Shown here in pieces: positions 16,695 through 18,858 of a stretch of 64,000 bases of DNA. Position 1 is the first letter of the stretch, and each line of letters opens with the position of its first letter. Position numbers and translations under genes: made by a program. The notes beneath the pieces are model-generated. The model made no database searches and was not told the DNA's origin. It worked only from the letters and a program-made list of their open reading frames with translations. The DNA is taken from the NCBI GenBank assembly GCA_003833135.1, contig QZLH01000405.1, forward strand, positions 27,580-91,579, written 5' to 3'. Origin of the DNA: Oehlia diaphana (Eukaryota > Glomeromycota > Glomeromycetes > Glomerales > Glomeraceae).

Positions 16695-18858
16695 TTAACT
16701 TTCCATCCATTTATATGATCCCATGATCAAATATTGTTTTGGGAGCCGACCTGGTGATGGTGATAGTATTGTCATTTTCTGCTTGCTTATATCAACGTGA
16801 GATCTGTAAAATAAATATTAATTAATAATAATAATTTGATTAAAAAACAAATCAATCATATTTACACATAAATAAATCCAATAACTGTTGATACAAGTAA
16901 AGACTGTTCATCTGAGTTATTGGCAGTGCTAATTGCCAAAATGGAATGTAACAACGTATCATCCGGTTCAACTTTTACCAGTTGAGTTTCACTAACTTTT
17001 CTGTCAATTCCAATTGGAAGCGCAGAAGAAGGTGCCAATGAACCTGTTTATCAAGAGACAAAGTTTGAGAATTACAATATAAAAAAGAAAGCTATAATAT
17101 GTGCTAAAAATTATTTAATCACCAACTCCAACACGATAAATGGAAATATCATTTAAGTTAATTAAAGTTGAGCAGGGAGATAATTCAAATTTTGGCAATC
17201 CATAAAAATATTCCCGAATTTTGCGCATTTGTGCTTGTCTACGAAATGCATTATCTCTATTGACCACCTGCAAATTACAAAAAATCACCGTTAATATCGA
17301 TCATATTCATCTAAAATTTAATTCTTTATTTACTTACTCCTCCTGACTTTGATAATTTCACTACATTGACATCATTACGCTCCTTGTATAATCTTGCCAT
17401 ATCACTATACAATCGTTCGTGACCAAGTACAATTATGATATTTACTTAACAATTCAATAACGTTAGAAATAAAAATCACAACAATGAAACAATGCATATA
17501 TATATATCAAAATCATGATTGCTAATTTATATTACCATTAAATATATCTACACAATGTTGTATGATCTCATAGCCTGTGCTATCAACAAGCCCACTTGTA
17601 TCAATCACGATTCCTGAAACTCTAGCTACAGGAAAAAGATAAGGATTTAATTAAAAAATAAAACATTATTTCGAAAGAAATAAATAATTTACCAACTTCA
17701 TCCTCAACCAAACGTCTTGAAACATTATCGGCCAATTTTTTTGTCAGTACCTTGTATAGTTTTATATTCTCGCTAGGATCCGGATATCCGTAATAAAAAA
17801 CCATTGGCATAAAAGAAGAACTAAATGATGGTGCAGTTGTTGCCGATGAACCAAAACCTTCTTCCACATCTATAATATGATTTATTGGCGTCGCAGTTAA
17901 GGTACCCGGCATTGTAATTGAACCCTAGGAAATTAATGGTATATCAACAAAAAGCACTGGGTAATATGGAAAATTACATACAATCGACTTGCCTCATTGC
18001 TATCCAGATTAATAAATAAAGGTTGTCTACCATGACGTATTGCATAGCTAAGCAATAATTTACTTAATGACGTTTTCCCTACGTCTTCAGGACCCACAAT
18101 CATAACCTAAAGAATCATTATAATTAATAACAATATAAAAGTGAGATTGTTATTGTATAACTCAATGCTTACTTTTGGTCCCTGTTCATCTTTTGATTTG
18201 GCTGCTTCTCTACATTGTTCGAGTGCGATATGCATATTGAGGTAACTTGTCATAGGAGTTTCATTAGCAACATATTCAACACTACATGTTCCTTTAATGT
18301 GTTAAAAATTCATGCTAAGGATGATACATCATATTTTCCATAAAACTAAATTAAATAATAGAGGATATTTCAATTGTGCAGCCATGCCAGGTAAAAAGTG
18401 CAATTTTGCGACCTGAAAATTCATATTCATGACCTATTCCAATTTCTGTACCAAATATTTCTGCCGTACCAGAGATCAACTAAGATGAAATTTTATAATT
18501 AATTTAATCGATTTGTTTATTATATCTCTTACTCATTGATACTGATTATACATTTTTTCATAATCAACTAAAGTATGTGTAACATAAATTTCAAAAGCTC
18601 AATATAGAAGCTTTCTAAAGCTGACGATAAATAACTAGCATGGAGTACAAGTTTCTTCTTTGTCTTACCTTCAAATTCACCGTAGTTCCAAAATCCACCT
18701 CAAATCGAAACTCATGTTCGGGTTCGAGTTTCCATTCTTTTGAAACAACTTCCTATATAGGTATCGGTTAGTAATAACAATTTTTTAGTTTAATAGATAA
18801 CCGAGGAGCATAATACCTGTTGGCTGGTTTTCGTTTGTCCTTTAGCTGAAGAATGCAT
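16695..18858 (-). CDS. CLP1: CLP1-family polyribonucleotide kinase / mRNA 3'-end processing factor, 11 exons, 445 aa
   Basis: In yeast and animals CLP1 belongs to cleavage factor IA/IIm for pre-mRNA 3'-end formation. The animal protein is also an RNA 5'-kinase linked to tRNA splicing. Exons 18858-18817, 18752-18669, 18479-18369, 18298-18173, 18106-17993, 17924-17693, 17625-17536, 17444-17338, 17267-17123, 17043-16866 and 16803-16695 give 445 aa, the family's usual length. The N-terminal beta domain contains EWKLEPEHEFRFEV and FTWHGCTIE. The Walker A loop is GPEDVGKTS (residues about 126-134), followed by GSITMPGTLTA and DVEEGFG, then VLGHERLY, and a C-terminal domain ending ILSPSPGRLPK. All match CLP1 in order. 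Two introns are non-canonical (AT-AC and GC-AG, listed separately). It is divergent from NAE1. Confidence 0.95.
17925..17992 (-). other. CLP1: Probable GC-AG intron in CLP1
   Basis: The donor reads GAG|GCAAGT, the typical strong GC-type site. The acceptor TTTCCTAG is followed by GGT-TCA-ATT. The splice gives LDSNEGSITMPG, matching the CLP1 family spacing. A GT donor 15 nt downstream (TAT|GTAATT) would also keep frame but would insert five residues into a conserved loop. It is therefore less likely. Confidence 0.7.
18299..18368 (-). other. CLP1: Probable U12-type AT-AC intron in CLP1
   Basis: On the minus strand, the exon ending ACA-ATT-GAA is followed by ATATCCTCT. The 70-nt intron ends TTTTTAACAC before ATT-AAA-GGA-ACA. 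The first seven intron bases match the U12 AT-AC donor consensus ATATCCTT exactly. CATCCTTAGC, with its A about 16 nt before the acceptor, resembles the U12 branch site TTCCTTAAC. The frame has a TAA stop 17 nt into the intron, and no in-frame GT donor exists between the conserved FTWHGC and that stop. AT-AC splicing yields IEIKGTCSVEYV, which lines up with the CLP1 family without gaps. Confidence 0.85.

What the first reader, a model, noticed from the sequence alone, without database searches (positions are those of the whole stretch)
18299..18368. U12-dependent AT-AC intron in fungal CLP1
Seen: the 70-nt intron begins ATATCCTCT and ends AC, with CATCCTTAGC about 16 nt from the acceptor. It is the only joint that keeps the conserved FTWHGCTIE...KGTCSVEYV sequence in frame. 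Known: the minor spliceosome recognises ATATCCTT donors and TTCCTTAAC branch sites, and has been lost from most fungi, surviving in a few early-diverging groups. Inference: this organism has a working minor spliceosome, and a core 3'-end-processing gene depends on it. Standard GT-AG gene finders would break this gene here.
Basis: partly seen in the sequence, partly recalled or inferred. Interest (0 to 1): 0.85.

Follow-up and report, generated by a model that had tools for sequence, protein, structure and literature searches.

The report
U12-type AT-AC intron in CLP1
A rare kind of intron, removed by the minor spliceosome, interrupts an RNA-processing gene of an arbuscular mycorrhizal fungus; such introns were already reported in a close relative, but deposited versions of this gene from related fungi are often misread at just this spot.

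Summary
On the minus strand, CLP1 (11 exons, 445 aa) has a 70-nt intron at 18368-18299: ATATCCTC...ATCCTTAGC...AC. The spliced protein is identical over its whole length to a deposited Rhizophagus diaphanus protein. Of 4990 in-frame, stop-free joints, this one gives the best-scoring protein (725.5 bits, tied with three 1-3-base shifts); the best GC-AG or GT-AG joint scores 27 bits lower. The genome carries U11, U12, U4atac and U6atac above Rfam cut-offs and a U11/U12-25K homologue. Own U11 and U6atac pair best with this donor of the ten in CLP1.

Minor introns (205) and all four snRNAs are already published for Rhizophagus irregularis (PMC10639083), so this is a new member of a known kind.

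New here: of 13 deposited Glomeromycotina CLP1 models covering this joint, 12 carry an indel there, against 27 of 117 at GT-AG joints of the same models and 5 of 98 in other listed proteins. Ten of the 12 deletions have the length and place that decoy sites in this window predict. Eleven of the 13 models share one naming style, so they are not independent. The intron is probably ancestral to the group. No RNA or relatives' DNA was examined.

The parts
18299..18368 (-). U12-type AT-AC intron of CLP1, 70 nt, phase 0, between codons for E79 and I80
18361..18368 (-). 5' splice site ATATCCTC
   Evidence: 7-nt pairing (two G-U pairs included) of ATATCCT with the genome's own U11 5' end; duplex energies U11 -7.4 and U6atac -5.7 kcal/mol, the strongest of the 10 CLP1 donors
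18314..18322 (-). branch site ATCCTTAGC, probable branch A at 18316 (inferred)
   Evidence: pairs with own U12 UAAGGAU, 7 continuous pairs; -7.6 kcal/mol, second of the ten introns
18299..18300 (-). AC 3' splice site; a second AAC two bases upstream (ending 18301) is out of frame
16695..18858 (-). CLP1 gene, 11 exons: 18858-18817, 18752-18669, 18479-18369, 18298-18173, 18106-17993, 17924-17693, 17625-17536, 17444-17338, 17267-17123, 17043-16866, 16803-16695 (stop included)
   Evidence: 445 aa identical to deposited P0001; all 10 genome matches fall at this place
18291..18383 (-). decoy GC-AG joint (exon bases 18383 and 18291) that would drop the 7 residues GCTIEIK; a 7-residue gap at this place occurs in 8 deposited Glomeromycotina models, 4 of them with exactly FTWHGTCSVEYV
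18291..18413 (-). decoy GT-AG joint (exon bases 18413 and 18291) that would drop 17 residues; its product EYEFSGTCSVEYV occurs in the deposited R. irregularis model P0002
17925..17992 (-). GC-AG intron of CLP1 (GCAAGT donor), the other non-GT-AG joint of the gene
   Evidence: indels at this joint in 8 of 15 covering Glomeromycotina models

Best explanation
The 70-nt stretch is a U12-dependent AT-AC intron of the single CLP1 gene found in the genome of Rhizophagus diaphanus (now Oehlia diaphana in the NCBI taxonomy). Shown: sequence, frame, protein identity, and the presence of all four minor snRNAs. Inferred: U11 recognises ATATCCT, U12 pairs with ATCCTTA around a branch A at 18316, U4atac/U6atac replace U11 at the donor, and splicing joins GAA (E79) to ATT (I80), restoring the N-terminal stretch FTWHGCTIEIKGTCSVEYV. 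If the intron is retained, translation stops after five more codons. Inferred from damaged gene models: the same intron sits at the same place across Glomeromycotina and was present in their common ancestor.
For: Ties for best of 4990 in-frame joints against a profile of 25 CLP1 proteins from outside Glomeromycotina (two of which, P0060 and P0081, themselves have indels here), and first by 7.3 bits of the 78 with recognised ends. 445/445 identity to the deposited R. diaphanus protein. Alignment without gap across the joint with the solved Clp1 chain 8hmy_E. U12 69.1 bits (cut-off 53), U6atac 79.8 (33), U11 71.9 (39), U4atac 55.7 (53), one match above cut-off each. U11/U12-25K homologue. Of the 10 CLP1 introns only this one pairs well with own U11 (-7.4; the rest -2.7 or weaker) and U6atac (-5.7; the rest -0.9 or weaker). 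Indels at this joint in 12 of 13 covering Glomeromycotina models, against 27 of 117 pooled over the eight GT-AG joints in the same models and 5 of 98 in other listed proteins.
Against: No RNA-seq or cDNA was available. The deposited R. diaphanus protein may derive from the same assembly, and how it was predicted was not seen. The motif alone is about as frequent as chance. The branch site departs from consensus (TCCTTAGC, not TCCTTRAY), and GT-AG intron 6 has a better U12 match (-9.1) than this one (-7.6). U4atac is only 2.7 bits over its cut-off. One of 13 covering Glomeromycotina models (Acaulospora morrowiae) has no indel here. Indel counts are not independent: 11 of the 13 covering models bear one naming style (number_t:CDS), probably one pipeline, and those models have indels elsewhere too (8 of 16 at GT-AG joint 8, 6 of 13 at joint 1), so the contrast with the 98 others is confounded by pipeline. 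The intron's ends in relatives were not seen as DNA.
Confidence: 0.95

Rival explanations
1. The joint is really a GC-AG or GT-AG major-class splice (for example 18383/18291), as deposited models of relatives state, and these CLP1 proteins lack the residues GCTIEIK.
For: Eight deposited models have the 7-residue gap that the GC-AG joint gives; R. irregularis P0002 and Geosiphon P0004 have gaps of 17 and 16 residues as the GT-AG and another GC-AG decoy would give.
Against: 27 bits worse against CLP1 proteins from outside the group. 93 of 98 other listed proteins that cover the site have no indel of 3 or more residues there, and a solved Clp1 chain aligns without gap. The GC donor (CATG|GCTGCA) does not resemble GCAAGT. 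Different relatives show different deletions at the one joint, which is how failed gene prediction looks.
Confidence: 0.03
2. An AT-AC intron removed by the major (U2) spliceosome.
For: Major-class AT-AC introns exist (recalled).
Against: Those carry ATAAG-type donors (recalled); this one carries ATATCCT and pairs with own U11 and U6atac.
Confidence: 0.01
3. Assembly error, pseudogene or chance motif with no intron.
For: The motif alone is not rare.
Against: The other exons are open, the protein is full length and matches a deposited one; no second copy was found; reading through meets a stop.
Confidence: 0.01

Closest known systems
U12-type (minor) AT-AC introns of animals and plants
   Same: RTATCCT donor, TCCTTA branch motif, AC end (consensus as given in PMC2846911, passages seen)
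   Different: Donor position 8 is C; the branch motif reads ATCCTTAGC; the intron is short (70 nt) and in phase 0, the phase that minor introns tend to avoid (PMC10639083, passage)
Minor introns of Rhizophagus irregularis (PMC10639083)
   Same: Close relative; 205 minor introns and all four minor snRNAs reported (passages)
   Different: A search of the held main text finds no CLP1, diaphanus or Gigaspora; figures and supplements were not seen, so this intron may already be in its tables
U12-type introns of Rhizopus oryzae and Phycomyces blakesleeanus (PMC2846911)
   Same: AT-AC U12 introns with minor snRNAs in fungi (1, and 8 or 9 by method, table passage)
   Different: Gene lists not seen

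Membership tests
U12-type AT-AC intron | 5' splice site ATATCCTY | tested here: met
   ATATCCTC at 18368-18361
U12-type AT-AC intron | branch site close to TCCTTRAY a short way before the acceptor | tested here: met
   TCCTTAGC, one mismatch, 17 nt from probable branch A to acceptor; 7 pairs with own U12; not unique, intron 6 pairs better
U12-type AT-AC intron | AC end joining in frame to the conserved protein | tested here: met
U12-type AT-AC intron | minor snRNAs U11, U12, U4atac, U6atac in the same genome | tested here: met
U12-type AT-AC intron | minor-specific proteins in the same genome | tested here: inconclusive
   25K met: PF18036 in two exons and match to PDB 8r7n_B. A CHHC finger (PF05253) was found, but the same search also rings in a prokaryotic control and the only solved match is GTSF1, so 48K is open. 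65K, 35K, 31K and 20K not tested
U12-type AT-AC intron | removed in vivo by the minor spliceosome | not testable with these tools
   no RNA data
CLP1 (polynucleotide 5'-hydroxyl kinase, 3'-end processing) | CLP1_N, CLP1_P and Clp1 domains | tested here: met
   activity not tested
Same intron conserved across Glomeromycotina | intron of the same type at the same codon in relatives' DNA | tested here: inconclusive
   Only protein models seen: indel at the joint in 12 of 13; Gigaspora margarita P0008 starts MQHIKGT, i.e. a CAY codon just before ATH-AAR-GGN, compatible with an AC acceptor

The most novel reading that the evidence does not exclude
This minor intron was already in CLP1 of the ancestor of Glomeromycotina, and possibly of fungi: the five models outside the group with an indel at the site are from Spizellomyces, Thoreauomyces, Thamnocephalis, Bifiguratus and Absidia. 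In this lineage the U12 branch-binding stretch has moved from GUAAGGAAAA (Rfam consensus) to GUAAGGAUAA, and branch sites have followed by taking A before TCCTT, as here (ATCCTTAGC), so that U12 and its introns have co-evolved.
Probability: 0.25. Interest if true: 0.55.

Novelty: new member of a known kind. Interest (0 to 1): 0.38.

Why it matters
Arbuscular mycorrhizal fungi are among the fungi that keep a minor spliceosome (PMC10639083). CLP1 is a core 3'-end-processing factor, so a minor intron in it would tie the supply of that factor to minor splicing (inference). The practical point is larger: if one minor intron coincides with damaged gene models in 12 of 13 relatives, other genes in these genomes may be mis-annotated at minor introns too, and surveys that start from annotated introns would undercount them (inference from one gene).

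Tried and rejected
Motif scan as a test on its own: rejected, as frequent as chance allows. Of its other rows, the minus-strand candidate at 31068-30852 lies opposite an open frame with a FANCI match and was dropped as chance; the one at 27945-27842 has no such frame opposite it that I could name and was left unresolved; the remaining rows were not followed. Branch-site energy as a discriminator among the ten introns: rejected, because GT-AG intron 6 scores better. Genome-wide count of minor introns: not done. One search gave 4484 forward and 4693 reverse ATATCCTY against 3611 and 3603 for the reversed word, which base order alone could explain. DNA of relatives: not obtained. The genome search states that this genome has no relatives in its set, metagenome scans were capped at 0, and I did not scan viral contigs or genome contigs, which hold viral and bacterial or archaeal contigs. 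Papers on the R. diaphanus genome and on the de novo AMF assemblies: one search each, 0 hits and 1 unrelated hit. Fisher tests are reported but not leaned on, because the models are related and mostly share a naming style.

Full report
What is there. The window is part of a 108.8-Mb genome in 1672 contigs. On its minus strand, 18858-16695, lies a CLP1 gene. I placed 11 exons by hand; they join to an open frame of 445 aa with all three CLP1 Pfam domains, a match over nearly its whole length to Clp1 chain 8hmy_E (E 1.8e-105), and complete identity to a deposited protein named Rhizophagus diaphanus (P0001). The organism is therefore R. diaphanus or something very close. The taxonomy copy now calls it Oehlia diaphana (Glomeromycotina, Glomerales). 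All 10 genome matches to the protein lie at this one place. Eight introns are GT-AG, one is GC-AG (17992-17925), and intron 3 is AT-AC (18368-18299, 70 nt).

Is the joint right? I enumerated every in-frame, stop-free joint between exons 3 and 4 within the range tried (last exon base 18478-18331, first 18345-18181, at least 30 nt between), whatever its dinucleotides, and scored the resulting proteins against a profile of 25 CLP1 proteins from outside Glomeromycotina. Of 4990, the proposed joint scores best (725.5 bits), tied with three shifts of 1-3 bases that give the same protein. Three of the four placements give the same mRNA, so RNA reads alone could not tell them apart; only one has AT-AC ends. 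Of the 78 with GT-AG, GC-AG or AT-AC ends it is first; the next is 718.2 (AT-AC) and the best GC-AG is 698.6. Two profile members (P0060, P0081) have indels at the site themselves, which if anything favours the rivals. Retention would put a stop after five codons. The motif itself is not evidence enough (counts under the observation check).

Is the machinery there? Each of the four minor snRNA families gives one match above its Rfam cut-off: U12 on C82 (69.1 bits), U6atac on C1103 (79.8), U4atac on C10 (55.7), U11 on C701 (71.9) (aligned). U4atac is only just over its cut-off of 53; U11 has a second, weak match below cut-off (20.5 bits). None of the 14 control genomes reaches a cut-off for these four; the control names that I saw are prokaryotes, so this is no fungal control. 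A U11/U12-25K gene is found as two exons whose joined product matches the 25K chain 8r7n_B (E 1e-10). A CHHC zinc finger is also present, but that search also rings in Sulfolobus and the only solved match is GTSF1, so I do not count it as 48K. The other minor-specific proteins were not searched for.

Do the parts fit each other? The genome's own U11 5' end pairs with ATATCCT over 7 nt, and own U12 pairs with ATCCTTA over 7 nt. Compared over the ten CLP1 introns, intron 3 has by far the best donor pairing with U11 (-7.4 against -2.7 or weaker) and U6atac (-5.7 against -0.9 or weaker). Its U12 pairing (-7.6) is second to that of GT-AG intron 6 (-9.1), so the branch site does not discriminate. 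The U12 of this genome reads GUAAGGAUAAU where the Rfam consensus reads GUAAGGAAAAU. The A before TCCTT in this intron restores a pair there; pairing with own U12 is -7.6, with the consensus U12 -6.5. With one intron this is a lead only.

What relatives show. One search found 935 proteins and listed the best 120. From these I took the 16 named Glomeromycotina models besides P0001 (one unnamed model, P0039, was set aside) and compared each with P0001. An indel of 3 residues or more, within 4 residues of the joint, falls at the AT-AC joint in 12 of the 13 that cover it; at the GC-AG joint in 8 of 15; and over the eight GT-AG joints in 27 of 117, unevenly (from 0 of 15 to 8 of 16). Among the 102 other listed proteins, mostly fungal, the figure at the AT-AC site is 5 of 98 (Fisher p 2e-11 and 1e-6, not to be leaned on). 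Eleven of the 13 covering models bear one naming style (number_t:CDS) and are damaged in other places too. The two of other origin, Gigaspora rosea P0003 and Geosiphon P0004, also have the indel here. Eight models lack the 7 residues that the GC-AG decoy of this window would drop; R. irregularis P0002 lacks 17, as the GT-AG decoy would; Geosiphon P0004 lacks 16, as another GC-AG decoy would; Acaulospora colombiana P0062 and Entrophospora P0066 lack 21 and 28 and match no decoy that I checked. Gigaspora margarita P0008 begins MQHIKGT, as if inside the intron, with an H codon compatible with an AC acceptor. Acaulospora morrowiae P0005 has no indel here. Ambispora and Geosiphon belong to Archaeosporales, R. 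diaphanus to Glomerales, so if this reading is right the intron predates the split of these orders. The five exceptions elsewhere are Bifiguratus, Absidia, Spizellomyces, Thoreauomyces and Thamnocephalis (names, indels); Spizellomyces punctatus is reported to have minor introns (PMC10639083, passage). Whether these reflect the same intron is open.

What is known. PMC10639083 (passages seen; figures and supplements not seen) reports 205 minor introns and all four snRNAs in R. irregularis. Its held main text names neither CLP1 nor diaphanus. Searches for minor or U12-type introns together with CLP1 gave 2 papers and 1 paper, none on this subject by its title (listings only). I did not find the gene-model damage in print in the open-licence library searched (listings, with passages of PMC10639083 alone). 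The finding is real, correctly read, and a new member of a known kind.

Noticed in passing
17925-17992 (-): GC-AG intron in CLP1 with a GCAAGT donor; 8 of 15 covering Glomeromycotina models have indels at this joint too.
   Followed up: partly
L009 1501-1664 (-): U12 snRNA with GUAAGGAUAAU in the branch-binding stretch, one base off the Rfam consensus GUAAGGAAAAU.
   Followed up: partly
L012 1501-1641 (-): U11 5' end UAAAAGGGUGUGUG: the UGU after GGG, where the Rfam consensus has cuc, lets it pair with the first three intron bases AUA as well.
   Followed up: no
about 19550-22000 (+): Divergent neighbour of CLP1 with a ThiF-like exon, by eye an APPBP1/NAE1-like E1 subunit; the Pfam match (26.7 bits) is just below its cut-off of 28.1.
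   Followed up: no
about 28000-32000 (+): FANCI-like gene (FANCI solenoid 4 match in the open frame 30830-31324, 38.2 bits); extent judged by eye.
   Followed up: no
P0060, P0063, P0081, P0083, P0097: Five CLP1 models from other fungi with indels at the same site as the AT-AC intron; possible deeper ancestry.
   Followed up: partly
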